Assembly (NCBI GenBank): GCA_007922225.1
Contig: ML679966.1
Span: forward strand, 58,300,148-58,364,147
Reading direction: 5' to 3'
Source: Emydura subglobosa
Taxonomy: Eukaryota > Chordata > Testudines > Chelidae
DNA length: 64,000 nucleotides
Shown here one piece after another: positions 34,884-64,000 of the stretch. The position numbers were made by a program, and so were the translations under genes. The notes under the pieces were generated by a model. The model had not been told where the DNA came from and did no database searches. It saw only the letters and a program-made list of their open reading frames with translations. Every line of letters starts with the position of its first letter. Position 1 is the stretch's first letter.

Positions 34884-35006
34884 TGTAGCCAGGAGGTGTG
34901 GCCTCCCTCAAAGATTGATACCGAGGGAGAGCAAACCCGCCCCCCTCCGGGTGTTGGAACCCAGTAGTACAGCACCTGACCGGAAGTAAGTAGGTGGGGC
35001 TAGGCC

Positions 35007-35014
35007 TATAAAAG
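35007..35014 (+). promoter_or_regulatory. TATA box of copy B
   Basis: TATAAAAG in the context GGCCTATAAAAGCC, 123 bp from the element start and about 120 bp before the acidic open frame. It is the best preserved promoter-like box of the three copies with copy C. Confidence 0.6.
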
Positions 35015-35135
35015 CCAGGCCTGCCCACTCAGTCAGAGCCCAGCAGCTGAGGGAGAAGGATGCCTCTCCCTTGGTGCCTAAGTCTATGCCACACCCAACT
35101 GCTACCCGGAGGAGGGGCTGCCAGATCTACCCACG

Positions 35136-35420
35136 GTGTGGGGCCCTGAGGATCTAGAAGAGACCCCCAGACCCTATGACCTGGAGGAGAGGCTGCCAGA
35201 GCTGCCTACTTCCTGGGACCCTGAGGACCTGGAGGAGCTACCCAAGCTGCCAACCCCCGGTGAGCCAGAAAGGACACACAGATCCTGGGACCTAGAGGAA
35301 CTTCCCTCTGCAGATAACCCCTTACAGTTCCCGGACCTGCTGTCAAGCGATGAGGAACCAGGTACTTTAGGGAGAGGGTGGGAGGAAGTAGCCCAGAGAA
35401 GCCAACTATGGTCTGGCTGA
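35136..35420 (+). CDS. LTR-embedded open frame with DLEELP repeats (copy B)
   Basis: A 94-codon frame from ATG to TGA encodes an acidic Leu/Glu/Pro-rich product with repeats EDLEETP, DLEERLPELP, EDLEELPKLP and DLEELPSADNP, then LQFPDLLSSDEEPG and a C-terminal GWEEVAQR. The frame is also open upstream of the ATG, so the start is not certain. The DLEELPSADNP block (35289-35321) is identical in protein to one in copy C (62938-62970), although the DNA differs at seven third-codon positions. A donor-like CAG/GTACTT falls inside the frame. It has no known domain and no assigned function. Confidence 0.5.
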   Translation: MWGPEDLEETPRPYDLEERLPELPTSWDPEDLEELPKLPTPGEPERTHRSWDLEELPSADNPLQFPDLLSSDEEPGTLGRGWEEVAQRSQLWSG

Positions 35421-35569
35421 GCTTGCGCTCATTCCGAGTAAGCATGCTTCGGCTGGAGCCCCGCTGACCCAGTGACAGGGGGCTCTGGGCTGGTACACAG
35501 TGGAGACTGGTGGGCCTGCATCCTCCTCCCCCCTTCCTAACCCAGCCTAGGGGTGATTGCCCAGTGAGG

Positions 35570-35930
35570 GCCAGGGCCTGTTGCCTGCTGCCTGCCATGC
35601 CCTGCCAAAGGGCCTGGTGTAGGTTAGCTACTCGCCCTGCTGAGGGCTAGAGACTGCTTCCCCTCCCCATTGTCTGCCTACCCTGCATAGACTGTTTACT
35701 CACCCTGCCAAGGGCTGGAGGCTATTTACCGCTGCCTGCCCACCCTGCTGAGGGCCAGGCCATAGACGTACTTGCCCTGTGAGGGGCTGGAGACTGTTCC
35801 CCACTGACAGCCTGTCCTTGCTGAGGGCTGGGCAATAGACTGTTTGCTCACCCTATTCAAGGGCTAGAGACTATTAACCCTAAGGAGCAACCCAAACCCA
35901 AAGCTCGCCCTACTAAGGGCCAGAGGCGGC
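35570..35930 (+). repeat. Tandem-repeat tail of copy B
   Basis: Imperfect units share CACCCTGC, GAGGGCTGGAGAC and ATAGACTGTTTACTC. They correspond in place and motif to the tails of copies A and C. Confidence 0.65.
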
Positions 35931-36044
35931 CCCTTTAACTTGGACTCTTTGAAGAGGTTAGGTGCCAGGAGGTGTGGCCTCCCTCAGAGATTGACACCAA
36001 GGGAGAGCCACTGGAACTGCCCCCCCTACAGGGGATCTTCTACA

Positions 36045-37499
36045 ATGATAATTACATTATGATTATCACAAATATGTTCATTTTTCACCATTGTTTGCAA
36101 ACTATTTTGCACAATGTTTAGCCTTTAATATATTCAAGAGCTAACCACTGAGTATTTGCTGCTTCTCATTTGATATTTATGCCATGTGATTGGTTATCTA
36201 TGTCACATGCTACTGTTTTTACATTGTGAATGGATATCTTAATCTTTATAAATGGATGTTGCTTTTTCTGCTCTCAAATTTGTGTTTGGGAGCTGTTTCA
36301 GTTTCAACTAATCTGCAGTCTACTATGGAAAATTTCCAACCAGCTGTACTACACATTCATAAATGTTCAATATAGCTATTCTGGAAATAATAAGAAGCTT
36401 TCCAAAAAGTGTATTAACCCATTTCCAGTTTGCTTTCCAAAATATCTGTTCACAATAGTGTTCAGGATGCCTTTGCTTTTCATGAACATTTTTTGTGAAC
36501 ATTTTTTTGTGGGGAAAAAACCCTCACTCATCCAAATGTTCAAGCACTGGGGAATACAAGAAGTGGTTACCAGCAAAGTGAATTGGCAGGGTTTATTGAG
36601 GAGAATATATAAGAATGTTTTCTGCTGTATGTGTGCAGATTTAGTTGTGCTAAACAATGCTGGAAATCTTCCAGCATTCAAGTGAAATAATCTATATAAT
36701 AAGCATGTCTTTACACAATTTCCATCCAAACTCTTTAAATCCCTAGCAATCAAAAGATGTTGTAGGGTCTCTTTCACTTCTGTCATTCAAAATACACAGT
36801 CACTGAAACTTTTGATGACTTTTTGTTTCTTTTAGACCTAATGTACAATCCCCTGCAACACAAATACCTGATATTTTTAAAACAGGTAAAAGAACAATAA
36901 GATGTCGAAGTGTCTCCTTGAACTTGGATTTTGGGAGGGAAACTAGGCTCCCAGAGAGACTCAGAGAAGGGAAAGAGTTCTTGCCGTGTAGCAAAGAGAT
37001 CACTTCCAAGCCCAAGGACTTAACTCAATGGTCCTAAGTACTCTTTGCTCCTCCCCTGTGGAGCCTTCGTTGTGAGAGAGAGTGCAGACCGAGGACTTCA
37101 CTGCAAGAGACATGCAGAGGACTGTAGCCTTTCCTTTACTTAACAAAGCTGAATTTCTGAGATGGGATAGGTGCTGGCACTTCAGGTGAGACCCAGTAAC
37201 TTAGGACTGGAGTCCTTGGGACTAGAGACAGATTTGTAAAGAGACTACTTTACTCACTGATCCTAACCATGAGTAGGGTTTGGTGGATTGTTGAGGTGGT
37301 GCAGCCAAGAGACTATTACCTGTGGGACATTCCGACTGGTGGCCAAGACAGTAGTTAGATGTACTATTGACAAAGATACTGGCAGAAGAAATATTATGCT
37401 TTGTTTCTGTGTTTTCCCAGATGTATAGCTGTTCTCCCTTTCCCATAATGAAGATTGGGTGAGTGCATAACTGTTTGGAAAACTGTTCCCAGAAAGTAA
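36045..37499. other. Non-coding stretch, nothing identified
   Basis: A 151-codon open frame (36230-36685, +) and a 136-codon one on the other strand show no domain or codon pattern suggesting a gene. Confidence 0.4.
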
Positions 37500-38419
37500 T
37501 TATCAGTGGTTCACTGACAAGCTGGAAGGGCATATCAAGTGGGGTCCCAAAAGGATCAGTTCTGGGTCTGGTTCCGTTCAATATCTTTATCAATGATTTA
37601 TATAATGACATAGAGAGTACACTTATATAGTTTGCAGATGATACAATGATGGGAGGGGTTGCAAGTGCTTTGAAGGGTAGGATTAAAATTCAAAACGATC
37701 TGGACAAACTGGAGAAATGGTTTGAAATAAATAGGGTGAAATTCAATAAGGACAAATGCAAAGTATTCCATTTAAGAAAGATCAATCAGTTACATGCGTA
37801 CAAAATGGGAAATGACTTCCTAGGAAGGAGTTCTGCGGAAATGAGCGTCCTAGTGGATCACAAGCTAAATCTGAGTCAATGGTGTAACACAGTTGCAAAA
37901 AAAGCAAACATCATTCTGGGATGTATTAGTAGGAGTATTGTAAGCAAGTACAAGAAATTATTTTGCTCTACTCTACACTGATTAGGCCTCAGCTAGAGGA
38001 TTCTGTCCAGTTCTAGGCGTCACATTTCAGGAATGATGTGGATAAATTGGAGAAAGCTCAGAGAAGAAAAACAAAAAATATTAAAGGTCTAAAAAACAAT
38101 ACCTTTGAAGGAAGATTGGAAAAACTGGGTTAATCTGAAGAAGAGAAGACTGAGGGGGGACAAGGTAAGTTTTCAAGTACATAAAATATTTTTACAAGGA
38201 GGAGGGAGAAAAATTGTTCTCCTTGACCTCTGAGGATAGGACAAGAAGCAATGGGTTTAAATTTCAGTAAGGGTGGTTTAGATTGGACATTAGAAGAAAC
38301 TTCCTAACAGTCAAGTTTAGTTAAGCACTAAAATAAATAGTTTAGGGAGGTTATAGAATCTCCATCTTTGGAAATTTTTAAGAGCAGGTTAGACAAATAT
38401 CTGTCAGGAATGGTCTAAA
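37500..38419 (+). mobile_element. CR1 LINE, C-terminal reverse transcriptase and 3' region
   Basis: The reverse transcriptase fragment keeps NIFINDLYNDIE, then FADDT (catalytic motif, about 37630), LEKWFEINRVKFNKDKCKVF, SAEMSVLVDHKLNLSQW and ANIILGCISRS. One stop lies just before FADDT. The later part (LRPQLE-like onward) is broken. The 3' region reaches GAAATTTTTAAGAGCAGG and TGGTCTAAAT, where a hAT element (38420) interrupts or ends it. The typical final ATTCTATG repeats are missing. The copy is 5' truncated and dead. Confidence 0.85.
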
Positions 38420-39126
38420 TTGGGGTCTCCAAACTTTCAGCTGTGAGGGCCACATCCCTCAGTCTTGCTCTTAAGGTGGGCCAGAGCAGCTGGGCCCACA
38501 TCACATGGGGAGAAGGGGGGAAGGGATGGGGCCTGGAGGGGGAGTGGCCACCGTGCAGCGCTGCTTGGGGCCGGGAGCTGCACACTGGGCCCACGTAGAA
38601 GAGTGGCGGGGGGAAGCGGCGGGGCTTGGAAGGGAGATTGGCCAGTGTGCGGTGCTGCTTGGGGCCAGGAGTAGCATGGCTCCTGCCAGGGTGCTGCTAG
38701 ATCCACATGGGAGAGGGGCGGGGCCGGGACTGGGAAGCAGCTGCCATGTGGTGCTGCTTAGGGCCAGGAGCTGTGTGCTGGGCCCACATGGAAGAGAGGC
38801 AGGGCTGGGAGAGGGGGAAGTGGGATGGTCAAATGTGTCAGCAGGCCAGATGGGCAGGCCAGAGAGGGGAGCACTGATCTCCCATCCCACTGGCTGCAGA
38901 AGAGAGCCACTTCCTTGGGACCCAGGTGGAGTGCACAGGGCTATAGGATGCATGCGGTTTCCCTGTGGCAGCCAGGGGGACGGATATCAGCGAGGAGGCT
39001 GCTTCCTTGCTGAACTCCTTCCATCTGACTGCAGTGGGAGGGTGGGTGCTGGCAGAGACCGGTGGCCCTTCAGGGTTGTAAAAATGATACCCGTGGCCCT
39101 TGAGCCGAAAAGGCTGGGAACCACTA
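38420..39126. mobile_element. hAT-type element with GC-rich minisatellite core
   Basis: The left end TTGGGGTCTCCAAACTTT, running on to GAGGGCCACA, and the right end (reverse: TAGTGGTTCCCAGCCTTT, then AAGGGCCACG) form imperfect terminal inverted repeats. TCTAA is present on both sides (in GGTCTAAA and ATCTAAGG), consistent with a shifted or eroded 8-bp target duplication. The core (38553-38840) is a tandem repeat. No transposase. It sits at the end of a CR1 copy. Confidence 0.65.
38553..38840. repeat. Minisatellite, about 95-bp period
   Basis: Three units begin GTGCAGCGCTGCTTGGGGCC (38553), GTGCGGTGCTGCTTGGGGCC (38647) and ATGTGGTGCTGCTTAGGGCC (38746). Each continues through GGGCCCAC and GGGGCGGGGC-like text. 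The 226-codon open frame across it is an effect of GC content. Confidence 0.85.
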
Positions 39127-40380
39127 ATCTAAGGTTATTCTTTGTTAGCTACATATGCTTAAGCTTGTTGGGCCTTATCCTTTAATTATTTTGGCTAAGC
39201 TATTGTTCTACAGGCCTTGAGGCTTGTAGGCTCATTGCATAATCACCTTAACGTATACGTATGCCTCACCTAGCAAATAACTAAACCTAAAGGCTACAAA
39301 TCCTTTCCTCCACTTAATTTCTCTGTTAGTACCCTTTAGTTAGCCAGTGTCTTGCTGCATTAAAGTCTCACAGAACTCTTAATGGGGTAGCATATCTGTG
39401 CTCCAGAGTGGATCTGATCGGTCTTAAAACTTTCAGGAACAAAGAGAACTCATCAAGTTGAAGGGACAGTTTCTTTTCTCCTTAAATCCAGACCTCAATC
39501 ATATCTCTTTGTGACACTGCCTAAAATGAGGTCACAGTTGAAGCTCAATCTATGGTAGCCCATATCTATTATAAATTTAGCAAGGCATCACTCATGATTT
39601 CAAACTTGATAAAGAGTTGCACCTTAAAAGACTAAGGCCAGTAACCTCATATTCTGAGTACCAGTATTTGTTTGGGAACCTTGACAGAAGGACAATAAAT
39701 CTATCAGAGAGCAAGAAATGCTCTTTGCCAGAATCTGAACTGAGAGCCTCCTTTAATATAAGTAGCAGTAGGGGGAGCTTTTAACTTCAGGAAAAATGAT
39801 ACCCTTTAAATCAAGTTTCTCTGTTTGCAGAGAATCTGGATTTCATTCGAGACAACACAACTGCCTTCTCTTCTGTTTTGATGGAAAGCCTTCTGCAGCT
39901 TATAAATCAGAAATAATTTCACTGAGTCAAGCAGCCCCCACATCTCCTGCTTCATGTATCCAGTATGTCGTTTAAGGAGGATAGAATTTCATCAATCTTC
40001 AAAATGTACAACAGGATAAATTCCCAGTGCCTAATTCTCCACTTTGTCTCAAAACTTTTGCCCCAACAGACAAGAGGAAGTGCGGTTAAAGAGAAGATTA
40101 TTCAAAGGGTGTAATAAAATCCTAACCAAATCCAGAAAGGTCTGCACTTCAGTTATTTATAACAAAACGTGAAGCATTTTTGTACTGTAGTACATTGCTA
40201 TCATTTCAATGTTTTGACAGATTTTTTAACAAAATATTGTGATGCTTTCTACTGCTTTTTCTTTAAGAAGCCAGTTGCCTGAATATCTTTTCTCAGCCTA
40301 ATTCTTCAGGATAATTTACATTTAAAAAAAATATTCTTCTCACCTCTTAAAAAAAAATCCTATAGCTTACCGGGACTTAA
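39127..40380. other. Non-coding stretch, nothing identified
   Basis: No gene or named repeat recognised. Confidence 0.4.
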
Positions 40381-40470
40381 AATCATAGAATATTAGAGCT
40401 GGAAGGGACCTCAAGAGGTCATCTAGTCCAACGCCCTGCTCAAGGCAGTTCATGAAAATACATGGCAATT
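40381..40470 (-). mobile_element. CR1 LINE 3' tip
   Basis: On the plus strand it reads AATCATAGAATATTAGAGC, GGAAGGGACCTCAAGAGGTC and TCTAGTCCAACGCCCTGCTC, the reverse of the CR1 3' end. Severely 5' truncated. Confidence 0.9.
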
Positions 40471-40546
40471 CATGAAAACCCTTCATTTCTTGATTTATAT
40501 TTATCTCCCAACCCTATGCTACTATTAACATCATTTGAAGGAAAGA

Positions 40547-40580
40547 TTTTTATTTCTTTATTTCTTTATTTCTTTATTTT
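40547..40580 (+). repeat. (TTTATTTC)n octamer run
   Basis: About four units of an 8-bp repeat, between two CR1 tips. Confidence 0.9.
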
Positions 40581-40629
40581 AATGTTTCCAGAATTTTTAG
40601 TCATGGATTTGGGATTTTGTATGGTTTCT

Positions 40630-40690
40630 AATATAGAAAAATAGAAATGTGGGGCTGGGAGGAACCTCAAGAAGTCCAGTCTTACAACTC
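40630..40690 (-). mobile_element. Second CR1 LINE 3' tip
   Basis: TATAGAAAAATAGAAATG, GGGGCTGGGAGGAACCTCAA and GAAGTCCAGTC resemble the same CR1 3' end as at 40381, more diverged. Confidence 0.6.
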
Positions 40691-43600
40691 TCTATCTGCT
40701 TTAGAATACATATGATCTTACAGGCCAGGAAAGGTTCACAAAGCTGTTTATGTTGGCTGTGTAGCAATAGACTGACCTATAAAGGCAAAGGTTTACCCAC
40801 TGCTTAGGAACAAAAAATAGAAAGCCTAGCTTGTCAGATGGGAGCTGTGGAGCTGTCCTAGGACTGGGCAGCATCCATCTCCTTGTCACAAATCCTCCCT
40901 TTCCCTCCTCCACCACTGCTCAGGCAGTGATTGCAGTGATTGTTGTTACTACAACTCTAAAGCTGAAGTAAACGTTACTGTAATCAGGAGGCAACTAATG
41001 TGAGCATTAAATTACACCAGAAACAATGTAATTCTTACAGTAATATAAAAGCTCTTTGGAAGCTGTCATTCTATCCCTTTCTTAAAAATCAATTTAACAG
41101 TTCTAAAAGACAGTTCTAAAACTCCTAATCCATTAATTTCTGGAATAATATTATCACTTAAGCTTGACAGGACCATCCTTTACATATTCTTTATGCGTGT
41201 TACTCTATCGAGTGCAGTTCTTTAGTCAGACATTTTCATGCACAGAGAAGTTCCTTTACTGGTTTGGGTTGGCAGTAGATCATAATCAAGTTTTTTAAAA
41301 AATGTGTGTAGAATTGAGACTAGAACTGGGCAAAAGTTGCCAACTGGAAAAATTTCCTGACATTTATTTCTCAAGAAAGTTTGGTTAAATTTTCCAATTT
41401 TTATGGGAAAATTCCAAATGAAATATTTTGAAACAAACAAATGAAAGGTGTTTCTAATAAAAATTTCGACATTCAGCATTTTCAAAGGTCAAATGTATTG
41501 ACAGTCTTTAATCAGCACTCATGTTGGTGATAATTTCAACACAATTTCATTTTATTCATTGTTCTGCATAGCATTTTTCTAATGAGATCCTCCAAATCTG
41601 ACAGGATGACAAAAGTGACAAACATGTCATGTGGGAATTGCATTTCTCATACTGTTTGCTAGACACATTTTTTTTTCCTATAGCAGAATTTCCAGATGCA
41701 GGACTCCCTGTGCATGCAAACAATAATTCATCTGAGATTCAAAATAGGGTCTTCCTGCTCCATGGGCAGCAGGTCTACCCGGGAATTCAGAAGGGCTGAT
41801 CCTTCAGGATGACCGAAATCTAGCCTCACTAGAAGTTACTTTTTGGATCTCTCTCAGGAATAGAGTATTTCTTAGTTCACTGATGGTGTAAGTAGATATA
41901 ACTCTACTGATATCACTGCTCATATAGGGTTGCACCTACTTATGCCAGTGTTGAATTTGGCACAAAGAATCTACTTCTCAAATGCAAGGTCACCCTAATC
42001 AGTATCTTTTCCACAAATGAAAAAAAAATTGAATTAATTTACAAATGATTCTGTGCTACAGTAATTCATAATTTGGTACTGTCAGTTACAAGCATCTCAT
42101 ACAATATTTTCATTAATCCATTAATCTTGATTTAACTTAAAAACAAACACCCTCCACACACACTCTCCTCACCCCCAAAAATCAACACCCTGCTGAAAGA
42201 GTGGAGGTTAAGAAGCATATGCATCCCCCATGACTGCTCCTGCAACCTGTGAGTTGCCACTATCTATTATTATCCTTTGCCACCAGGCTAGGAAATCACA
42301 CTCACCTCAACTTGCAATAGAGGAAAGTAAATACTTAGCATTCTAAAAGCTGATAAATATATTGTGGTATTCCAAGACTGTGTGATGGTGAAGTGTGTCC
42401 CTACTGGTAGCCTAATTACTCTCCTTTTATTCCCTTTAGGTGTGTTATCAAACAGGTGGTTGCCACCAGTTAATACAGTACACCATTTTCCCAGAAAGTA
42501 AATGGATCATTTTTCTTTTCAACATGTGATGGTCATAGAGGCATTTTACCACTGTACTAAGATGACACTTAAAAATCAGAATGTGAACACTAAATCATAA
42601 TTTATTACTGGCAAACACCTGATATTATTAGCAGAGTTTCTAATCATCAATCTAAAAACAATTTTGTTTATCTCCTTTCTCTACAAATATATATGATTTT
42701 TTCTAATATCCCTTTATTCACTCGTAATACAGGAAAGTCTGTATGAAAAAATGGAAGGCTACATTCATACACTCATTCACAGTTAATTCCATAATAAGAA
42801 CATGACATGAGGAAAAGGATATGATAAAAATGTTATGTGCTTTGAGAAATTTAAATAGTTTTAAAAGTGAAAGTGTCAGCCTGGGAGAAATGAAAGGAGG
42901 GAGATAAGAAAAATACAAGAGGAAGGAGGGAAAAATAAAGCAAAAATATTCAAGAGAAAGAAGGGAGATATCAAGAACTAACATATGGATCCCTACCTAT
43001 CAGTCACAAAAGCATATACAAAATGAATAACAGGGAAGGGTTTGCATGGACCTATAGATGGTTAAGCAGATTTTTAAAATCATAAATCACATTCATTTGT
43101 TTAACTCCATGTGCATAATTCCATGTTGGTTTGGTAGTGACCCAAAGGAATCATCTGGGGCTAGATTATAATCTTACTTTCAAACCCTTAGTAAGGGGAG
43201 GTATATTGTTGCCCCTTTTCAGGGCAGAAAGATTTTAAGAGGTACAATTCCCTCTCTAGTCTCCCATCTGCTTTAGGGCAGAAATAATCTACTATTGGCC
43301 TACTGTATCAGTAGCAAATTACTGCCCCCAACAACCCATACTTGCTCAGCTCTGCTGTGCTTACTGGTTACTTGAAGAGTGGAGCCAAAGCTACATCCTT
43401 TCCTCTTCCTTGCCTGCCTACTTCTTGCCCTCTTACATGGTGATGGAAGTAACGACCCCACAGAATCTTTTTTCACTCCCCTGCACAAATTGGCAGTATA
43501 GGCAACCCAAGGAAAGGAGTAACACTATCTACTTCTATATGAGCAGATAGAGCAAGATGCAATTTTCCCCTCTCCTTTATCTTTGTACCTTTGTTTCTGA

Positions 43601-45401: not shown

Positions 45402-45450
45402 ACCTTCAATTCATAGCTTTATAGATTCTAAGGCCAAAAGGGACCATTAT

Positions 45451-45917
45451 TGTTGGGTTCCAATGCTGATAGCAGAGGACGAGGGAGGATTCCACTGCTG
45501 ATGGCAGAGGATGCGGGACGGATAAAGCACAACAACCAATATGATTGCAAGCAGAATCGTTTATTCCATCTTGTTCTCCAGCTTATATACCTTTTTATCA
45601 TCTTTGCATACAATGGTCACACAATTGCTGATTGGCTATTATATAATTTCACACACTTAGCATGGGAACAGCTTACATATTATTGGTAGCTTCTTAGCTT
45701 ACATAGCTTTCTTGTTTACGACCTTGAATACTTTCTACTATCTAGTGGATGGCGGCCAAGTCCGCGGAACTCGCCGCCAGTGAGGCGCCTGAGTGAAAGT
45801 GGCCACCTTCCAGCTCCCTGTAGGCAGCCTCACTTGACCCGGTGTCCACCACCAGGCCTGCTGTAACTTTCCACTTAAGTAGCCATCAGGTCAGTGTATG
45901 GATAATACACTCCCACA
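45451..45917 (-). repeat. 3' LTR of the ERV, 467 bp
   Basis: On the minus strand it starts TGTGGGAGTG and ends CCCAACA. It contains a TATA-like TATATAAG (about 45582-45592) and AATAAA (about 45560). A purine tract (AAAGGGGGGAGA, 45918-45930) precedes it, as expected for second-strand priming. Confidence 0.8.
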
Positions 45918-47569: not shown

Positions 47570-47720
47570 GCTGCACTGCAACCACAAGTGTGATTGCAGC
47601 ACATGTAGACCTACCCGAACTAGCTTGAATCTAGCTAGTGCGAGTACTAGTATCACCGAAGCCGCAGCAGCATAGGCTTCAGCATCGGCTGGCCTCCCAT
47701 GAACATATCCAGCATCGTTG
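47570..47720. mobile_element. Harbinger-like MITE fragment
   Basis: CACATGTAGACCTACCCGA, CTAGCTTGAATCTAGCTAG and GAAGCCGCAGCAGCATAGG match the inner part of a common sauropsid MITE with CTAGCT...AGCTAG symmetry. Neither terminus was located. Confidence 0.45.
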
Positions 47721-52429: not shown

Positions 52430-53400
52430 GCTATCCTAAATGTTCAACATCTTCATTAATGATCTGGAGGATGGGGTAGATTGCACCCTCAGCAAGTTTG
52501 CGGATGGCACTAAGCTGGGGGGGAGTGGTAGATACCCTGTAAGGTAGGGATAGGATACAGAAGGACCCAAACAAACTGGAGGATTGGGCCAAAAAAAATC
52601 TAATGAGGTTCAACAAAGAAAAGTGCAGAGTCCTCCACTAAGGAAGGAAGAATCCCAGGCACAGCTATAGACTGGGGACCGACGAGCTAGGCACCAGTTC
52701 TGCAGAAAAGGACCTGGGGGGTAACAGTGGATAAAAAGCTGGATATGAGTCAGCAGTGTGTCCTGGTTGTCAAGAAGGCTAAGAGTATATTGGGCTGCAT
52801 TAGGAGGAGCATTGCCAGCAGGTCACGGAAAATGATTATTCCCCTCTATTCGGCATTGGTAAGGCCGCATTTAGAGTATTGTCCAGTTTTGGGCCCCCCA
52901 TTACAAAAAGGATGTAGACAAGTTGGAGAGAGTACAGCGGAGGGCAACAAAAATGATTAGGGGGCTGGAGTATAGGACTTATGAGGAGAGGCTAAGGAAA
53001 CTGGGCTTGTTTAGTCTGCAAAAGAGAAGAATGAGGAGGGGATTTGATAGCAGCCTTTAACTACCTGAAAGGGGGTTCCAGGGAGGATGGAGCTAGGCTG
53101 TTCTCAGTGGTGGCAGACGACAGAACAAGGAGCAATGGTCTCAAGTTGCAGTTGGGGAGGTCTAGGTTGGACATTAGGAAAAAGTTTTTCACTAGGAGGG
53201 TGGTGAAGCACTTGAATGGGTTACCTAGGGAGGTGGTGGAATCTCCATCTTTAGAGGTTTTTACGCTGAGGCTTGACAAAGCCCTAGCTGGGATGATATA
53301 GCTGAGGTTAGTCCTGCTTTGAGCAGGGGGTTGGACTAGATGACCTCCTGAGGTCCCTTCCAACTCTAATATTCTGTGATTCTATGATTCTATGATTCTT
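52430..53400 (+). mobile_element. CR1 LINE, 3' third
   Basis: It begins inside the reverse transcriptase (VQHLH*-like start, FINDLEDGVDCTLSKFADGT, the catalytic FADDT read as FADGT) and continues with [54 protein letters not shown] and, after frameshifts, the C-terminal CR1 segment ([20 protein letters not shown]). The 3' end (GGGGTTGGACTAGATGACC, CTTCCAACTCTAATATTC) closes with octamer repeats at 53371-53400. It is 5' truncated and has frameshifts, but its sequence is closer to the family consensus than the copy at 37500, so it is younger. Confidence 0.92.
53371..53400 (+). repeat. CR1 terminal ATTCTATG octamers
   Basis: ATTCTGTG, ATTCTATG, ATTCTATG, ATTCTT: the short octamer array that ends CR1 elements. 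Confidence 0.95.
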
Positions 53401-56400
53401 CTAGCTCTATAAAACATTGTGGTGGAAAAACATTGTCCTAATGGAGAGCTTCCATAGTAAGTAAATCTGGAACAGCACTGACCTGTATCCAAAGTAGTAC
53501 AGGCAGATCCAGTCTTCACAGAAGATACATGCCTTAGTCCTATGTCAGTCAGCTGCTGAGTCTTTAACAAAGCTGGCTTTAACGCCTATATTTATAATGT
53601 CCACCCCACCCCTAGAGCTCTGGTTGGATAAGCTTTCAAATGGTGAATATGTGTATTGCTTCCGGAACAGCTATTGAGTATATGTAAAAACTTCCAAACC
53701 CTATTTTTGGATGTTTCTGGGACCTTCAGCTTCATGTGTGCAGAGACCGACAGTATTCCAAACAAAAATCCATGTCTCCTTGCTCCTGCTTCTCTCCCTT
53801 TCTTTGGTCTAAACAAATCAAATGCTAAACAAATAAAGCCCGTGGGTTATATTTACATTCCATAGACTGCATTAATAACCTGTCAATGTTAATACATTTT
53901 TTGATAAATTTTATTAGAAGGCTAACGTTTTTATGATCAAGTCAAATTGATTAGTATTCCCATGTAATTATTTGACAGAGGACTCTAGACTTCACGTAGG
54001 TTCTATTTTTTATTACTGCCAATTAGAGAGCAAGAAATTAAAAGGGTAAATTAATTTACAACACAATTCAGACAGTTTCTACATTGCCTTGTAAAATCAA
54101 CCTGCAGATTATGGATTATGTTACGTTTTTATTTAAATAGCTGCATTCTGAAATATGGAGTTAATAGACCATTAGGAAAAGGTTTTCTTTGGCCCAAGTA
54201 ACCTGTTAAAATGTAACATTAATTGCTCCAGCAATTACTTTTTCTTTTGGATAAGTATTAACTTATCTGAATTCTCCCCCGTCTTCCACTCACACACACC
54301 TCACCTCACAAACTGAAGTGATCTAAATTACAGTGTTAGAGCCTGTTTATTTTTACTAAAGGCAATATAATTTTTAGTTGAATATAAATTAGGAGCATAG
54401 ATGATTAATTATTTTCACATGAATACCTGAGAAAATGTTTCAGCTCAGCTCTATTACTGACAAAGTTTCATATGACATACAAGCTAGAAAAGTACACTGT
54501 TTAAATTAATAGGGAGATAGACTAGGATGTACATATGCTGATTGCCCTACTGCTGCTATTAAACTTGTAGAACTGATATCCTGGTGCATTTTAATATCCA
54601 CATTATATTTGTGGATATCATCACTGACCATAAGGGAAATTGTGGTGAAGGAGAGGAATCAGTGAATTCCATGTAACATGCATTTGAAATCTAAATCAGC
54701 AAGGTAGAGAGACTGGCCATTAAGAAATGATCTGCTTGCATGAACTCACTAGAAGTGCAAATGCTTGCTTCACAACATAGGAGACACACCTCAGCTTCTT
54801 TTGTATTGATTTCCTGGTTAACTATGTAGGGACAGTTATGAAAAGAAATGTTTTTCTTTCTTTCTATTGGGTCAGTCCTTTATGGACAAAGGGAGATAGA
54901 GAATCCTGGTAGGGGACACTTCTAGTTCTGGGGAGAGGATGAGAGAACAAACAACTGCTATGTAGTCACATTGCTCAATGCACCAGTGGAAGACACTCAG
55001 ACACTAAAGTGATGAGTGTAGTATAAAAACCTGTATAGAATAGACTAGACTAGACTAGAATAGAACAGAATGCTGAGTCAGATTGTCAAAGAAACTCAGC
55101 AAAAACTTCTATTTAGACACCTACTTCAATGGACAGATTTTCAAAACTGCTCATTACCCAATATCTCCCATTCTTCTCAGTGGGAGTTCAGTACTTTTGA
55201 AAATGTAGCCATTTCATTCAAGTTTCTACATGGGTAACTGAAAAAATCTGATCTATTATCAATTGATTTAAAAGAGAGAGAAGGACACAAGATCAAAGTT
55301 TAGATCCACACCCGAATTCCCCTAGAATTTAGTGTGTTTGAACATGGAGTTTCCATTGGATCATCTCAGTTTCAAGGCCAATTGATATATTTATGTTTTA
55401 AACAAATAGCTGATACAGGAAGAGTCAAGTCACTCTCAGGTTGAAGCCAACATTGAGATTACATCTCTGATGCCAATTAAGGCACCTTGCCCAAATTATT
55501 GATAATTAGACTATGGTCAGTCTTGTTAACTCTGCCCCAACATAGTGTTGCTTGAAACATTACAATACAAGATAATACAGCTTTTTACATTTAAAATTCA
55601 AATCACAAATGTAGATGAAAATAACATGATTTCTCAAGATTAAACATATAACTCCTAACACATGAAATGCATGTGTACGAGAGCAACATTTTAGACAGCA
55701 AAGCTGTTTAACCTAACAGTGCTTTAGGTATTTGAGGAACTGTTCTATAGGTGGCATTCTCAAACACAGTCTTCGGCTTCTAGCAACACATACCTGCTCG
55801 CTATCAGGCATCTGCTGCAGTACAAAACAAGTGCAAAAATGCTGAGATAGAGTCATCCCTCTTCTAATAAAGTTTGGAAAAGAAAACAAAACCAAAGAAG
55901 CTGATAGTTATGCAGAATGGTTGTCATAATTCTTGTGGTTTCATTTAGTTTCAGGTAGCTGACGTGTGGTTCTAAACATTAGCGGGTGATCTTATTAGTG
56001 CATATGTTTTAATGTTGGTGGACTTGCCTGCCGGCTAGAAGTTACCTGCTTGAAGATGGTAAATCTTGGATCTGCATTGATGGACTCCTACCCCTTGATG
56101 GCTGGGAGGGTGGAGCAAGCATTGGCCTCTTTGTTGGGCAGAGTGGCATCACATGGCCAGAGGATGAAAGCCAATGGCTATAGTAGCAGTTATAAGAGGC
56201 ATGCAAGCCAACAATCCAAACAATTCAACAAGCAAAGCTCTCCTTCCCCTCTTCAATTTTTGAAGATGGTGGCTGGCCTGCCTAGTTATGCCCCCTTTGG
56301 AACTTCTCTTAGGAATCCATTGATGAATTAGAATTGAGCACTCCCTTCTCAGGGTGCTGACATCTCCCAATGAGGTTTGATGAGATCACCTTTGTGCAAA

Positions 56401-58087
56401 CAAACAACCTCCCATTCCAGTAACTTCAAGCTTGGAAAGTCCACAGATCCAAAAATATATCCGGACAATGAGTCAAGAGGTCTGTAGATATTTTGAGACA
56501 TTTGAAGTCGTGGGTCAGTTTGCAGGCATTATCTCAAAAAGGCCTCAAAAATCCTGAGTGAAAAATCATTTTAAAAATACAAAATGTTGCAAATGAAATG
56601 TTAGGAAAACACTGATCATAAATTCATTCAGCCTTGCCCAGAAAGGGACAGTTATTTTTTAAACAGTTTTTTGGACCCACAAAAACTAGGTGAATGGTTA
56701 GACTTGAACTTGGTCAGAGAAACAAGTCTTTTCTACCTAGAATCACAATGTAGGTATTCTATTCTATATATTGGCCTATCTGCCTCACAATATGGAGAAA
56801 ATTTTGCTAAAAACAGCACTGAATCCAAAGTCTGGCTTGTGATCAGAAGAGGAGCAGAAATTCAGACAGGCTCTGTGTTTTTTTAAAAACTGGTTTACCC
56901 ACCTGACACTGATATTATCCATTTGCAGATAAACCACATACTTTGATTTAAGATTGTAGGAAAATGACTCTTAAGTGCAAGATTACCTTATATAAAAATA
57001 TCACTTTGATATTAAAAGAAAGACTCACTGTCCACAGCAAATTATATCCACTAGCTCTTTAAAAATCTCTTGTCAATGCTAATACAACAAAAATCAGAGA
57101 AGCAATGAATTAATAATGTGTGTGTGGGATACTATTTGTCATCTTTTGGTCTGTGGATATAAATGAGTTCAAAGGCATCTCTTGCTTATCAGGAACTACC
57201 CAGTCTCAACTCAAAGTTCAGTCACACATTCACTAGCTAAATTAATACAACAGAATCCTGTTAAATGGATGTTCCTTTGTATGGCCTCCCATTTAACAGA
57301 AGACACTATATAAAGAATGATGCTGTTATCTGTGGAGCCGCAGAGTTGCAATGAAAGTACATCATGATACTGGACAGGCTGCTGATGTTAGAGGGAGGCA
57401 CTATTTGCACTGGGATAATAAATGAGCTTGCTGCCTGCCCTCATTGGCAGGGGCAACTGTAAAATGCCCAGCTATGGCATGTCCAGTCGTTGTGAACATA
57501 GCTGATCGATAACCGGGAACAGGCAGTGGTTAAGATCTCCTTTTCTATGTGTATCACAGCTCAGGAAGGATGGAAAGAAATGCTTAATCAGTACAGCAAA
57601 TCTCTGGTGCCTGATTCTGCTCCTAGTGAAGACAATGTCAACACGCCTACTGATTTTAACAGGACCTTTATTTAGGTCCACAATAATAATATATATATTT
57701 AAAGAGAAGAGTAATTAAACAAGTAAAAATATCTCAGCAATGAACCATGGTATATGTATTACTTCACATTCACTATGTCTTCCAGGCATCAAAATGTAAT
57801 CTTTTTAAGTTGTCTTTGTTTAGCAGTGTCCTTGACACAAAATTAAACCTTGATATGTGAATCTGATGAAGAGCATCCAAAGCAGAAGCTTGGTATTATC
57901 TCCTTTAGTTCACAGCAGGTGACTAATTCCCACTGATCCAGAATGCTAATTTCAGTGAAATTGCACGTACACTAGGCTCAGTCAAATTAAATAGTGTACT
58001 TAATTTCTCTCCAAACACCTGTCAGTGTTGCACACTGCTTTAAACTGTTGTTCTTTTTAATTGATAAGTGCACACAACTCAACTGTC
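53401..58087. other. Non-coding, AT-rich, nothing identified
   Basis: No gene or transposon recognised. 53880-54430 is AT-rich and repeat-free. CTTTCTTTC (54857) and CACACACACC (54291) are short simple repeats. Confidence 0.4.
55034..55072 (+). repeat. TAGAC pentanucleotide run
   Basis: ATAGAATAGACTAGACTAGA followed by CTAGAATAGAACAGAAT: five or six imperfect 5-bp units. Confidence 0.9.
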
Positions 58088-58185
58088 TAAAGCCTCAGTC
58101 CTGCAAAGATTTATGCTTGTGCTTCATTTTACACAGTTAGTAGTCCCACTGATTTTAGTGGGACTATTCGCAGGGCTAAATCCTG
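58088..58185. mobile_element. Palindromic MITE-like repeat
   Basis: TCCTGCAAAGATTTATGC, then a perfect 9-bp hairpin AGTCCCACT (58142-58150) and AGTGGGACT (58157-58165) with a 6-base loop, then a degenerate right half ending near AAATCCTGG. The family is nearly fully palindromic when intact. A right-half scrap lies at 29655. It lies just before the Gypsy 3' terminal repeat. Confidence 0.55.
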
Positions 58186-58248
58186 GCTCTATTCAAGTTA
58201 GTTGCACAACTACCATTGACTTCATAGGCTCAGGATCTTACCCACAGT

Positions 58249-58320
58249 GTTTCATGTACCACATGCTAGGTAATAACATGAAAGGACTCCATGCTCATAA
58301 AACTAATCCAACTCTTTATT
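58249..58320 (-). repeat. 3' LTR (R/U5-like part) of the Gypsy element
   Basis: On the minus strand it runs from CCAATAAAGAGTTGG, containing the AATAAA signal, to GGTACATGAAACA. The pol frame ends at this AATAAA, so no U3 is evident here. This is odd for a complete 3' LTR. Confidence 0.65.
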
Positions 58321-58329
58321 GGTGACTTG

Positions 58330-60060
58330 ATTCCAACCCGTTGCTGCCTTCATTCTGTTGGGTGGTGTCCTGTTGGGCCTCTACATCACTCATATGCCTT
58401 GTTTCTTCTGACCCTCCTACATCAGACCAGCTAATGGCTGAGGCTCTTTCTAAGTTTGCTTGGTCCTGACCTTCGCCCTGTCTGTCTGTGCGTGCCAGCT
58501 GTCTTTCACCACTCTGTAGCTGTCAATGGTTTCAGCTCCAAAGTTGTCTTGTGACTGTAGCTACTGCTTATGACCTGTGTCCCAGGATGGACTTTGCCTT
58601 TTGCCATTGCTTTATGTGGCTATTGGATGACTGGACCCAGACCTGCTCACCTATGTGCAATGGCTTCATATTGCTGGCTTCTTTGTTGTAGTGTGCTGCC
58701 TGCTTAGCTTGACATTCTCTTAACTGCTTCTCTGTCCTGTGCATTATCCCTCCACTGGACTGCAGCAGACTACCCCTCTGGGTCTCCAATCTATCAGTCT
58801 CTGTACTGGGCTACTATGTAGTCCCCGGAGGGCATCTTGAAATGGTCCAACTTGCCTGATAGAGATCCCTGCCTGTCTGTTTTTCCTTTGCCATCAATCT
58901 CTTGGCTGTCTCTACTGCCTATTCTGCCATCTCACTTTATGGGTACCAAGGGGAAGACATCTTGTGCTCAAACTTCCATTTGTTCCTGAATCACTTGAAT
59001 TTTGCTGCAGCATACTGTGGCCCATTGTCTGAATCTAGCATGACAGATATGCCGAAGCTTGCAAAATGCACACTCGCTCTTGCTCTCACTCTCTCTCAGT
59101 TTCAAAAGGTCTCAACATTTCTCCATGGTGGAACAGATTTTTTTTTTTTGAAATCTCAGTTTCACAGGATGGGAAAACTATTTCCCACCCAGCTCTAGTC
59201 ACCAGCTACAACCTTGAAGCCTGGGAGTTCCACTAAGACACTTCTGGTGACAGGCTGATGCCCATAAGCAGTTGTACCCAACAGTACCAGCCAAAAGGCA
59301 TGGCAAAAATTATCAGGTGCCTGGCAGGCTCATCTAGCTCAATAATCCAGAAGCCATTTGTCCCAGAGTGCTCCCTCAGCTGTGCTGCTCCCTGTGCGAC
59401 ACTCCTTGGCCAGTTTGCATGGTCTCTTATTCACAACACATGCACAAGCCAGTTCTTTCCCGCATGGTTACCTTTAATTATTAGATTCCAAGCACTGCCG
59501 ACCATAACACAGGCTTGTGTTGGCTTCCACCCAGTTTTGTCTACCATGCCCAGCTCACCCTTTACTTCCTGTCAAATATATATCTTCCCTTTATTGAGCT
59601 AATTACCTCATTCGCCCAACAATTACCACCAAGTGTCAACAATCCCCACCATAACAGGTTAATTGACTTCAGTGAAGCCTTTAATCTTCTCTGTAATGAA
59701 ATTACCTATGTAACCAGAGTATTAAAGCCAGCAGTCTATGACACCATTCTTAACATCACAAACAGTGAACACTTTTGCTCTGGATACATAAGGTAGTATG
59801 TCCTCAATCACTGGTAACACTAGTGACTTTTCAATGCTCTGTTGAGTGGGTTGGGGATAACACAGAAGCTCAGTTTACCTACTATGGGGCTGATCAACTT
59901 TACATTATTTTCGAGGGGGTGTAATGATGCCTCTTCTTTGGATGTTTGCTGCTTCCTTTTTCAGTGGCTCCTCCAGGGCTAATGAAACTATTTTGAGAGT
60001 CTCTCCGGTTACACTAGGGGCTCAACGTCAAATTTCAGCTTGCCCTCTACAAGTTCATCT
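58330..60060 (-). pseudogene. Gypsy pol: reverse transcriptase N-terminus and integrase C-terminal half
   Basis: From high to low coordinates: GELVEGKLKFDVEPLV and PERLSK near 60060-59960 resemble the PxxxxPRRxP start of Gypsy reverse transcriptase. 59900-59200 is unassigned. Integrase begins with DSDNGPQYAAAKFK (59013-59050, second catalytic Asp region) and continues through EMAE-AVETAKRLM (58900) and a 73-codon frame (58789-58568) with RECQAKQAAHYNKEAS and GEQVWVQ, the GxxVWV motif of the integrase C-terminal domain. An acidic, Gln-rich tail follows to the stop near 58315. Many stops and frameshifts are present. The RT catalytic YxDD and RNase H were not seen. Confidence 0.75.
59130..59200. 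mobile_element. Scrap of the AT-rich AGAGCTGG family inside Gypsy pol
   Basis: A T-run followed by GATGGGAAAACTATTTCCCACCCAGCTCTAG-type text (core ATTTCCCACCCAGCTCTAG) matches the terminus of the family at 5970 read in reverse. It interrupts the integrase region. Confidence 0.5.
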
Positions 60061-60389
60061 CCTTGAAATAGATCCTTATATTCTGTTAGAATGCTGGACA
60101 AGGGCCTACAGTGACTGTTTTTCCTCCTGTCTCATATTGAGGATATTCTGGTGTTGTATTGCAATCAAATCCATGGTTCACACTGCCGTGTGGGACTCCT
60201 GGGTGGGACTCCTGGCTGCCAACTCCTATAAACTCCAAACAATAACATCTTTTGTTTTATTATCAACAGCCTGCATTTGCCTATTGGCCTCAGAGTGGTT
60301 TTATTATACATCACCAGCACTTGGTCACATTTCTCCACTGGTTATCAGTGCTGCTGAGATTACATTGCAGCTGACTCCTCAGTCCAGTT

Positions 60390-61130
60390 TGAATCAAATT
60401 GGTCATTGGTCTAAGAGTATAATGGCAAATATTGTAGTTGAATGACTGGCAACCTTCTTCTTCAATGCATGCACACTGGGAGTTTTTGGATCTGCTAAAG
60501 TTACACCACATATATCCTCCTCTTCACTGGAAGTCTGTACATTCTCAATCACTGCGTGTACTGCTGTCTTTAATTTTTCTTTGTTCCTGCAGCACTGGGA
60601 CATAAAATAGTTCTCTTTTCTACACCCATATCCCACCAATTGCACCCCTGACAACAATACTCATAGGCTGGGCATTTTTCTTATAGCCTTTCACATTGCT
60701 TTCCACAGTATGTAAACTGGATCATAATGCCAGTCTGCACTAGTGGCTGTCATTATTTTGATCCTTTCCCTGGACAGTTCAGCTGCCCTTGCAATTTAAA
60801 GGCATTTTTTTTAGTGTTAGATCTGTTTCTCTCAACAATCATTCCTGTAAGCTCCACAAATGATTCTGTTTTAATCAGGGCATCTTTAATGTTTCCAAAG
60901 TTACATCCGGATGTCAGCTCTGTAACGTAAATATCTATTCCTTCTTTTGCTTTTTGGTTTTGGGTAAAAAATCAGTATCTCCCTATAGTTTCATTTTTAT
61001 GGGGTTACAGTATTCCTGTCCTTTTTCTCCCAGTGAGATAGTAAAAAAGCTTCACCTTCATTTTCTCATCTTTATCCTCTTTGTTCAGTTCAGTATACAG
61101 ACACAGTTCTTGCTTCAGCTATTTTCAAGC
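60390..61130 (-). pseudogene. Gypsy gag and protease
   Basis: Gag fragments on the minus strand include NKEDKDEKMKVKLFYYLTG, RYxFFTQNQKAKEGIDIYVT and CNFGNIKDALI (x marks a stop), which match the capsid region of vertebrate Gypsy Gag. A zinc-knuckle-like stretch YCGKQCER...EKCPAYE...CQGC...NYFMSQC (60720-60600) is followed by LKTAVHAV and ADPKTPSVHALKKK. The protease start reads TTIFAIILLDQ and then FKLD-stop-GVSCNVI near 60397; the catalytic Asp remains but the Thr/Ser of the DTG/DSG motif is a stop. Non-functional. Confidence 0.75.
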
Positions 61131-61279
61131 ATGTTCAAGGTTTTTTATCTCATACCCAGTGTTCCTAGTGCTCTGGGTCCCTCCACGATGCGTTTGTTCT
61201 GTTTCTAGGTTCTGCCTTGTTTGCTTGTTAATCACACACTCTTCCTTGCTGTGGGTTTCACTAGGCTGACCACTGCCAT

Positions 61280-61352
61280 GATGTTTCATGTACCATGTGC
61301 TGGATAACCACATAAAAGAACTCTGCTTTTGTAAAATTAAACCAGCACTTCA
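61280..61352 (-). repeat. 5' LTR (R/U5-like part) of the Gypsy element
   Basis: It matches 58249-58320 over about 70 bp (TTTCATGTACCA, GCTGGATAA, AAAGAACTCTGCTTTTG) with numerous differences, so the element is old. The LTR probably extends right of 61352, with no clear limit. Confidence 0.65.
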
Positions 61353-62024
61353 TTAAGACAACTAGTTACAGTGATGCTACAGCTGAAGTTAGCATTCAGC
61401 TCACGTGCATATAGACTGACTTCCTCATGCCTCTTCCAAACTCTTTCTTTTTGCAACCTGTACGCCTCTCTCCAAGTAAATGTGTGTACATTTTAAAAGA
61501 TTGTGGCTTAATATTGCTTCTCATAATTCAGTGTAACTACTACTAAAACAATCCCACAAATTGCACACACCAGTTTTACTGGCTGTGTTTACATAATCTA
61601 AAATAGCAAAGTCCAGTATGTATGAAAAACAGTAAAAACTAAAGAAAATTCTACAGCATATATACTTTTTTCTTTTTAGTTGTAAATCTAAAATATTATA
61701 TTGTAAATAAAGTAATGGGCATGTTAAAATGCGATAGACAGATATAGGCAAGCATTTTTTAAAAATCAGAAATAAAGAATTTTAAGGATCACAGCAACAC
61801 TTGTTTCTATATTTTTTCTTAAGTGATTTTCTATATACAAATCTAAACTCACCACTAGTTCCAAATACACTCCATGGAAATGGTTATAGAGGGAGGTGAC
61901 AGACGACAGTAATAATGTAACTCAACTCATTACAGTGCCATTCCATGATGACAAACATTAGCCAGCAGATTAATCTGTAGTTTAGTTGTAGGAGGTTGCT
62001 CAAATAGCATCCCTTTAGAACTGC
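61353..62024. other. Probably rest of the Gypsy 5' LTR, then unassigned
   Basis: The U3 of the minus-strand Gypsy should lie at the left of this stretch, but no terminus or target duplication was found. No gene recognised. Confidence 0.35.
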
Positions 62025-62654
62025 TGTAATGGAATGATAGACTGTATTATACTGTTCAGACAGTAGGTGGCATCGTGTAAAATATCTTTAAACAAACCTC
62101 AGCCTACCTGGCAGAGCTTTAAAGGATCATATGAGGAACACATCCGGTCTGTATAAGCAAGCTCTGTGACCAGTCCACATCTGGTACAGAAGTACATGAC
62201 ATGGTGTCAGGAGTAAACTAAGAACAGAAACTGAAGGAAAAGAGCAAAGGTTGCGAACAGAATGAACAAAACAACAAAGCTTGCAGGATCTCGTCAATGT
62301 GCCACTCTTCAATAGCCCCAGAAAATTTCTGGTTAGACAAACCTTCAAAGTGGACAAACTGGAAACAGTATTTTGCAAGATTTCACATTGCAAACAAACT
62401 CCACAAAGAAACTGGAGAATACAGGTATCTTCTTTAATTTATGCCATGGGGAAACAGGCAGAGCATATCTTTAAATCCCTTTGAATTTACTATAGACAGT
62501 CACAAGGATGACTATGAAAAGGCTCTGGCTATGTTTGATGCATTATACTTCTGTAAAAAAGCCCTGTGGCCTTCCTCGGAGCTTGGGCAGAACAAGGCCA
62601 TTCAGGCCAAATTCCCTGGAAGCAGAGGGGCAGAGCAAGGGCAGGCAAGGGAAA

Positions 62655-62662
62655 TATAAAAG
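62655..62662 (+). promoter_or_regulatory. TATA box of copy C
   Basis: TATAAAAG, in the same place as in copy B, about 100 bp from the element start. Confidence 0.6.
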
Positions 62663-62862
62663 GTTGGCCTAGCAACTCAATGAGGAGGAAGTTGCTGCCA
62701 GAAGCTGTGGTCTGGGCCTGACCCAGGCCCTGCGGCTGTGCAGAGCAACTGCCCTACTGACCAGCGCCTCCAAGACCTGCCCAGGCCGCTGAGCCCTAGT
62801 GACTGGGAAGAGCCTCCTGAGACCACTGAGTGGAGAAAAGCCCCTGAGGCTGGCCCTGACAT

Positions 62863-63069
62863 GGAGGAACTGCCTGATGTTGGGTACCCCCTGGAGCTGC
62901 CTGAGCCTGGTGTACCAGAAGACCCCTTGGACCCTGTGACCTGGAGGAACTGCCCTCCGCTGACAATCCTGAGGAATTGCTGGACCCGTCGCCGGTCGAT
63001 GGAGATGGACTCATAGGGCTCCCGCTCGACATCTACCCCAGCGACCCGGAGGGAGACATCCAGCTGCAG
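62863..63069 (+). pseudogene. LTR-embedded DLEELP repeat frame (copy C, one frameshift)
   Basis: The first part encodes MEELPDVGYPLELPEPG in one frame. After a shift near 62925 the second part reads DLEELPSADNPEELLDPS, then PVDGDGLIGLPLDIYPSD up to the donor-like site. PVDGDGLIGLP aligns with PVDEEGLMALP of copy A, and DLEELPSADNP is identical to copy B. The frameshift makes this copy non-coding as it stands. No function can be assigned. Confidence 0.5.
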
Positions 63070-63142
63070 GTACCTGGGGAAAGGGTGGGAGGAAGTAGCC
63101 CAGGGACAGCTGACTCTAGAGTGGCTAAGTCTGTGGTTGGGT

Positions 63143-63177
63143 CAGTCAGCGTGTTGCGGTTGGATCCCCGCTGACTG
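63143..63177 (+). repeat. Conserved stem-loop, copy C
   Basis: CAGTCAGC (63143-63150) pairs perfectly with GCTGACTG (63170-63177) around a 19-base loop holding TTGCGG and ATCCCC. It is the best version of the hairpin seen in copies A and B. Confidence 0.65.
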
Positions 63178-63289
63178 ATAGGGCCCTGGTCTGGGATGCA
63201 GTGGAGTCGGATGGGTCTGCATCCACCTCCCCCCTTCCCTAACCACCCATGAGTGCTTGGCTTCCTCTGGACTTGCATACCACAGAGTA

Positions 63290-63550
63290 CCGAGCTTTGC
63301 CAGCCCTGCCTGACCGGTAGGCCGAGGCTCTAGACTATTACCAGCCACCCACTTGAGGGCCAGCGGCTACTGACTGCTTCATCAGCCCTGCCTGTTGGAA
63401 GGCTGGGGGATATAGACTCCTTGCTTACCCTACCCTGTATGAGGGCTGGGGGCAATAGATTATTTCACAGCCCTGCCTGTCGGAAGGCTGGGGCTACAGA
63501 TTTCTTATCAGGCCTGCCCTACGTGAGGGACAGAGGGCTACAGACTGTAA
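63290..63550 (+). repeat. Tandem-repeat tail of copy C
   Basis: Imperfect units share CAGCCCTGCCTGTCGGAAGG, GCTGGGG and ATAGACT/ACAGATT. Homologous to the tails of copies A and B. Confidence 0.65.
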
Positions 63551-64000
63551 GCGAAGCCCTTTTGTAATCAGCAATGCTTATTCCCCTAGACCAAGGTGCT
63601 GTGGCCTTCCTCGGAGCCTGGGCTGAGGAAGGGTTGTGATGCCCTGGCTGGACGATGCCACCAGCCTACAACTTCTAAGAAATGTGGTTTTTGAAAGAGC
63701 TCATTTTCACTAGAGAATTTAGGAACCATGAGAAAATGGTGAATGCTTTATAGGAGCTCTGCATATATTGGCTGAAAACTGAATTTGGGAATGCTAAATA
63801 TGAAAATATAAGAGACAGGCTGGTTATTGGGTTAACAGGTAAAAATGTTTCACAGCAGCTACAACTGAAAAGAGATTTAACTTCAGCTACAGCTGTACAG
63901 GTATCAGAGAACTCAGAATTAGTCAAAAAAACCCAACAAGAACAAAAACCAGAACAAAAGGTAGGAGCAACTTGAAGAACCTGAAACTAGCTTAGAAGCT

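What the first reader, a model, noticed from the sequence alone, without database searches (positions are those of the whole stretch)
34884..63670. An LTR-type family encodes an acidic DLEELP-repeat protein that was under selection
Seen: copies A (11184), B (34884) and C (62552) each encode repeats of Asp-Leu-Glu-Glu-Leu-Pro between a TATA-like box and a conserved donor-like site. In the shared block DLEELPSADNP, copy B (35289-35321) and copy C (62938-62970) differ at 7 of 33 bases, and all seven are synonymous third positions. Other repeats also vary Leu codons (TTG, CTG, CTA, TTA, CTT) while keeping Leu. Inference: the ancestral element made this protein and selection kept it. Protein genes inside LTRs are rare (the MMTV superantigen is the known example), and I do not recognise this one.
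Basis: partly seen in the sequence, partly recalled or inferred. Interest (0 to 1): 0.88.

Follow-up and report, generated by a model that had tools for sequence, protein, structure and literature searches.

The report
Acidic repeat reading frame in LTRs
Three old retrovirus-like long terminal repeats carry a decayed reading frame for an acidic repeat peptide whose changes look like those of a real gene, though three copies and no visible start codon leave its use unproven.

Summary
A (11184-12454), B (34884-36044) and C (62552-63670) are solo LTRs: TG...CA ends, 5-bp target duplications (exact in A and C, 4 of 5 in B). Each has a TATA-like box followed by DLEELP-type units. The quoted block differs at 7 of 33 bases, all synonymous; so long a same-phase run has P = 0.0034 over all three pairs. 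Beyond that block the signal is moderate: the DLEELP frame has the lowest dN/dS of six frames in every pair (0.60, 0.39, 0.35) and scores best or tied in 14 of 15 tests; a non-coding control shows no consistent frame, though 2 of its 18 tests reach p below 0.05. An antisense frame (GSSSRS repeats) shares the third positions and scores nearly as well, so the strand is favoured, not settled. No copy has an in-frame ATG ahead of its first DLEELP-type unit, the 'donor' is conserved but weak, and A (one stop) and C (frame change) are broken. No homologue was found, but no vertebrate collection could be searched. Best reading: a decayed acidic, probably disordered peptide encoded in the transcribed part of an ERV-like LTR.

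The parts
11184..12454 (+). Solo LTR copy A (1271 bp), TSD GGTGC at 11179-11183 and 12455-12459; CpG o/e 0.54, the highest of the three
11583..11936 (+). Copy A open frame, 118 codons, with units at 11667, 11715, 11760; the same frame is open upstream 11184-11579 with one stop between
34884..36044 (+). Solo LTR copy B (1161 bp), TSD CTGAT/ATGAT (4 of 5); CpG o/e 0.18
35082..35417 (+). Copy B open frame, 112 codons; units at 35178, 35226, 35289 (and a diverged one, DLEETP, at 35151)
   Evidence: 35151 read
62552..63670 (+). Solo LTR copy C (1119 bp), TSD ACTTC at 62547-62551 and 63671-63675, inserted in an older repeat with a gag-like reading frame (gag by recall)
62684..62934 (+). Copy C, first part of the frame (unit at 62858)
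62935..63171 (+). Copy C, second part, in another phase after a frame change (unit at 62938, DLEELPSADNP)
11366..11373 (+). TATA-like box of copy A (TACAAAAG); counterparts start at 35007 (B) and 62655 (C), both TATAAAAG
11869..11875 (+). Invariant CAGGTAC (weak donor-like site); counterparts 35359-35365 (B) and 63067-63073 (C)
11888..11906 (+). Conserved motif GGAGGAAGTAGCCCAGRGA after the frame; counterparts 35381-35399 and 63088-63106
12411..12440 (+). Direct repeat of the first 30 bp of the LTR (11184-11213, 100%) near its 3' end; B has 34888-34932 and 35964-36008 at 93%

Best explanation
These are solo LTRs of an old endogenous-retrovirus-like family with 5-bp target duplications. Between the promoter and an invariant CAGGTAC the LTR carried a protein-coding segment: an array of acidic, Leu/Pro/Trp-rich units of the DLEELP type, 15 to 21 residues apart. 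Shown: LTR anatomy, a mostly in-phase repeat array, and substitutions that tend to spare the peptide in all three pairwise comparisons. Inferred: while the element was active this segment was translated from LTR-driven RNA as part of an accessory protein, reached by a non-AUG start or by splicing to sequence not present in solo LTRs; it probably worked as a disordered acidic segment, most plausibly an activation-domain-like part of a viral regulator acting through host co-activators. The copies have since decayed; I expect none of the three to make the protein now.
For: LTR borders and TSDs. dN/dS in the DLEELP frame: 0.447/0.745 (A-B), 0.421/1.078 (A-C), 0.376/1.076 (B-C), lowest of the six frames in each pair. 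Substitution-placement test: p_blosum 0.057, 0.005, 0.002 and p_syn 0.030, 0.012, 0.009 in this frame; 0.004 to 0.066 over the six ordered pairs. Best or tied of six frames in 14 of 15 settings. In-register aligned bases 168 of 222, 199 of 234 and 195 of 225 in blocks of 12 or more, first setting. Stops in this frame A 1, B 0, C 0; in the other two sense frames A 2 and 3, B 2 and 6, C 2 and 12. Control region after CAGGTAC: no consistent frame. Peptide A has 31 acidic and 2 basic residues of 118; low-confidence single-sequence model, mean pLDDT 63.6, pTM 0.15, two 4-residue helices.
Against: Only three copies, and the pairs share sequences, so p-values are not independent. Position-3 excess alone is weak: 24 of 64, 34 of 81, 30 of 65 differences, p 0.25, 0.06, 0.01. 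In the strictest-gap setting only 67 of 150 A-C bases are in register. No in-frame ATG ahead of the first DLEELP-type unit in any copy. Weak donor, and copy C's frame meets CAGGTAC in another phase than A and B. An antisense frame scores nearly as well and has as few stops in A and C. Nucleotides are better conserved after the frame than in it. 2 of 18 control tests reached p_blosum 0.03-0.04. C's frame was assigned with its frame change known, which favours register there.
Confidence: 0.55

Rival explanations
1. The coding strand is the other one: an antisense transcript of the LTR encoded a Ser/Gly-rich protein (GSSSRS repeats), as HTLV-1 HBZ is antisense (recalled). The sense DLEELP frame is only its mirror, because both frames share the same third positions.
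For: Copy A is open for 226 codons on that strand, 11168-11845, and the copy C stretch has a Met.
Against: Sense has the lower dN/dS in 3 of 3 pairs and fewer stops in the compared codons (1, 0, 0 against 2, 1, 2), and the higher z in 13 of 15 settings with one tie and one loss. The TATA-like box points the sense way. The 226-codon antisense frame in A shows no Met.
Confidence: 0.17
2. No protein: the units are tandem regulatory or RNA motifs, and the codon signal is a small-sample effect of GC-rich repeats in three copies.
For: Three copies only; weak position-3 excess; 2 of 18 noncoding control tests also reached p below 0.05; no start codon; GC-rich DNA here has long open frames anyway.
Against: The other two sense frames score negative in 29 of 30 settings. 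RNA folding of six conserved LTR stretches outside the array is no better than shuffles (z -0.57 to 1.03); the array itself was not folded.
Confidence: 0.22
3. The frame is the 3' end of a gene entering the LTR from the internal region, as in MMTV sag, nef or foamy virus genes, so it would be read in the 3' LTR.
For: The units sit in the frame that begins with the first base of the LTR in A (3 of 3), B (3 of 3) and C (1 of 2); copy A is open from its first base for 132 codons; U3 and leader of A and B are in register over 97 of 126 bp.
Against: Upstream of the array B has 4 and C has 2 in-frame stops; A-C and B-C are mostly out of register there (43 of 151 and 34 of 138 bp in register), and the A-B differences show no phase (8, 10, 11).
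Confidence: 0.06

Closest known systems
MMTV superantigen (sag), recalled
   Same: A protein frame inside a retroviral LTR
   Different: Sag lies in U3 of the 3' LTR, upstream of the promoter; here the frame is downstream of the TATA box and is an acidic repeat array; no sequence comparison with Sag was made
Foamy virus LTR and accessory genes (PMC3185757, passages seen)
   Same: An accessory ORF extends into the 3' LTR; splice donor inside the LTR R region
   Different: Foamy accessory frames enter from the internal region; here upstream LTR sequence shows no codon signal and the donor is weak
ERV3 and ERV4 classes (PMC4299795; outline, passages and sections 6 and 8 seen)
   Same: 5-bp target duplications
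   Different: ERV4 rests on pol phylogeny and solo LTRs have no pol; the host of this window is not known; the parts seen mention no reading frame inside an LTR
Ty1 gag, which begins inside the 5' LTR (recalled)
   Same: Coding sequence in the transcribed part of an LTR
   Different: Here the frame ends within the LTR and has no AUG
HTLV-1 HBZ (recalled)
   Same: Would be the model for the antisense rival
   Different: No antisense promoter or transcript was testable

Membership tests
LTR of an endogenous retrovirus or LTR retrotransposon | TG...CA ends and a short target site duplication | tested here: met
   TSD exact in A and C, 4 of 5 in B; TGTA...TACA in all three
LTR of an endogenous retrovirus or LTR retrotransposon | Promoter (TATA box) within it | tested here: met
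   TATAAAAG in B and C, TACAAAAG in A; sequence only, no activity test
LTR of an endogenous retrovirus or LTR retrotransposon | Polyadenylation signal | tested here: inconclusive
   No AATAAA or ATTAAA in any copy; one AATAGA in each
LTR of an endogenous retrovirus or LTR retrotransposon | Internal region with gag/pol between two LTRs | not testable with these tools
   All three are solo; the host genome search did not complete
ERV3/ERV4 class | 5-bp TSD | tested here: met
   class table; not specific to these classes
ERV3/ERV4 class | pol phylogeny | not testable with these tools
   no pol in solo LTRs
LTR-encoded accessory protein (MMTV sag kind) | Coding constraint on a frame inside the LTR | tested here: met
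   moderate signal, three copies only, strand not settled
LTR-encoded accessory protein (MMTV sag kind) | Start codon for the frame | tested here: not met
   no in-frame ATG ahead of the first DLEELP-type unit in any of three copies
LTR-encoded accessory protein (MMTV sag kind) | Transcript and protein made | not testable with these tools
   no expression data
LTR-encoded accessory protein (MMTV sag kind) | Frame in U3 of the 3' LTR | tested here: not met
   frame is after the TATA-like box; no codon signal upstream of it

The most novel reading that the evidence does not exclude
An extinct animal retrovirus lineage kept an unknown accessory protein gene inside the transcribed (R) part of its LTR: an acidic DLEELP repeat array, activation-domain-like, so that each provirus carried the gene twice and each solo LTR still carries promoter and gene together.
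Probability: 0.35. Interest if true: 0.75.

Novelty: new variant of a known kind. Interest (0 to 1): 0.5.

Why it matters
Few protein genes inside LTRs are known (recalled). A frame in the transcribed part would make even solo LTRs small promoter-plus-gene units, and solo LTRs can be very many (339,610 in three crocodilian genomes, PMC4299795 passage): a source of new host genes and a marker for tracing an old retrovirus lineage. It can be tested by counting in any genome that carries the family.

Tried and rejected
Reading from U3 (a nef or sag layout): set low, because U3 and leader are mostly out of register for A-C and B-C, hold in-frame stops, and show no phase in A-B although A-B is in register over 97 of 126 bp. 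Conserved RNA structure: six stretches after the frame and at the LTR end folded, none clearly better than shuffles; the repeat array was not folded. Terminal-direct-repeat transposon: rejected, because the 5-bp target duplications lie outside the whole element and the repeated 30-45 bp inside it. Homologues: Pfam 0 families for 5 of 5 pieces; PDB none for A and B; protein database none at E <= 10 for A and B (C not searched in either); viral contigs none for two DNA patterns; genome contigs gave 5 records titled as bacterial MAGs for a 19-base pattern, about what chance gives by my own estimate (near 4), not read further. These collections are not vertebrate ones, so absence says little. Rfam and tRNA: none in the window. 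Papers: answered searches were made; no listed title or abstract start showed this frame, and 'DLEELP' with 'LTR' gave 0 papers. Papers opened: PMC4299795 (outline, passages, sections 6 and 8) and PMC3185757 (passages).

The first script for codon positions stopped on an error and was rerun without that line.

Full report
What is there. Three elements on the + strand, A 11184-12454, B 34884-36044 and C 62552-63670, are related over their whole length; a profile of the three finds only these three in the window at E <= 1. They begin TGTA and end TACA and are flanked by 5-bp duplications: GGTGC in A, CTGAT/ATGAT in B, ACTTC in C. C interrupts an older repeat; when the flanks are joined with one ACTTC kept, one frame continues across the join, with stops on the way. 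I recognise it from memory as a Ty3/Gypsy-type gag, but Pfam gave no significant match for the two pieces. So these are solo LTRs with no internal region. The first 30-45 bases recur near the 3' end of A and B; C shows a similar recurrence by eye.

The frame. Downstream of the TATA-like box each copy has DLEELP-type units: A 11667, 11715, 11760; B 35178, 35226, 35289; C 62858 and 62938, the last in another phase. A is open 11583-11936 (118 codons), B 35082-35417 (112), C in two parts with a frame change between. The + strand scan for the DNA unit at up to 4 mismatches found 8 places in 64,000 bases, all in these LTRs.

Is it coding? Position-3 excess over all in-register sites is modest: 24 of 64 (A-B, p 0.25), 34 of 81 (A-C, p 0.06), 30 of 65 (B-C, p 0.01). 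A test that moves the same substitutions to other sites with the same base gave, in the DLEELP frame, p_blosum 0.057, 0.005 and 0.002 for A-B, A-C and B-C; the other two sense frames lay between 0.46 and 1.0. With five alignment settings the frame scored best in 13 of 15 cases, tied in one and came second in one. dN/dS was 0.60, 0.39 and 0.35, against 0.76 to 2.1 in the other frames apart from antisense frame -1. The control region after CAGGTAC showed no consistent frame, though 2 of its 18 tests reached p_blosum 0.03-0.04. Stops over the segment: sense frame A 1, B 0, C 0; other sense frames A 2 and 3, B 2 and 6, C 2 and 12; the three antisense frames A 1, 4, 1, B 6, 3, 1, and C's two parts 0, 2, 0 and 1, 1, 0, so in A and C the sense frame is only joint lowest. 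Decay after insertion must have added unselected changes to all three copies, so the ratios are upper bounds if the frame was coding (inference).

Which strand? Antisense frame -1 reads Ser/Gly repeats and has its third positions opposite the sense third positions. Sense is favoured by lower dN/dS in 3 of 3 pairs, fewer stops in the compared codons, higher z in 13 of 15 settings and the TATA-like box, but the question is open.

How it might have been made. Not shown. No in-frame ATG precedes the first DLEELP-type unit in any copy (C's first in-frame ATG is inside the unit at 62858). Upstream sequence is mostly out of register for A-C (43 of 151 bp in register) and B-C (34 of 138); A-B is in register over 97 of 126 bp, but its differences show no phase (8, 10, 11). 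So coding seems to start some way into the transcript. CAGGTAC is invariant but a weak donor. No AATAAA or ATTAAA is present; a single AATAGA in each copy may be the poly(A) signal, in which case the frame would lie in R (inference).

What it may do. Peptide A has 31 acidic and 2 basic residues of 118, with Leu, Pro and Trp interspersed, which resembles acidic activation domains (recalled; no assay). The single-sequence AlphaFold2 model has pTM 0.15 and mean pLDDT 63.6, in keeping with disorder, though models without an alignment are often poor.

Known or new. No homologue by Pfam, PDB or the protein collection, none of which is a set of vertebrate genomes. The family could belong to ERV3 or ERV4, which typically have 5-bp TSDs (PMC4299795, section 8), but class rests on pol, and the host of this window is not established. 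An acidic repeat frame downstream of the promoter within an LTR was not described in the parts of the two papers I saw; that is not a claim that it is unpublished, since Repbase reports and most subscription papers are not held.

Verdict. Observation confirmed; interpretation partly supported. I put about 0.55 on a sense coding segment under past constraint, 0.17 on antisense, 0.22 on no protein and 0.06 on a frame entering from the internal region.

Noticed in passing
11184-11213 and 12411-12440; 34888-34932 and 35964-36008: The first 30-45 bp of the LTR are repeated in the same direction near its 3' end, inside the target duplications; C shows a similar recurrence by eye. Function unknown.
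   Followed up: partly
11868-12071, 35359-35542, 63067-63244: The stretch after CAGGTAC holds the best conserved parts of the LTR (GGAGGAAGTAGCCCAGRGA in all three), with no consistent codon signal and no RNA structure better than shuffles in the part folded.
   Followed up: partly
12112-12332, 63378-63493: GC-rich imperfect tandem repeats in the 3' part of the LTR (CCCTGCCTGAGGGC... ATAGACT), with a single AATAGA per copy.
   Followed up: no
62192-62551 and 63671-63972: Copy C sits in a broken gag-like reading frame that I recall as Ty3/Gypsy type; Pfam gave nothing significant for two pieces.
   Followed up: partly
37631-37978: Weak reverse transcriptase match (RVT_1, E 0.0092, below Pfam's cut-off), looks like a CR1 LINE (recalled); 37576-38397 is 66% alike to 52442-53280.
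   Followed up: partly
12953-13210: Tandem array of an 80-bp GC-rich unit, 3.2 copies.
   Followed up: no
11184-12454: Copy A keeps CpG o/e 0.54 against 0.18 and 0.27 in B and C, so it may be the youngest.
   Followed up: no
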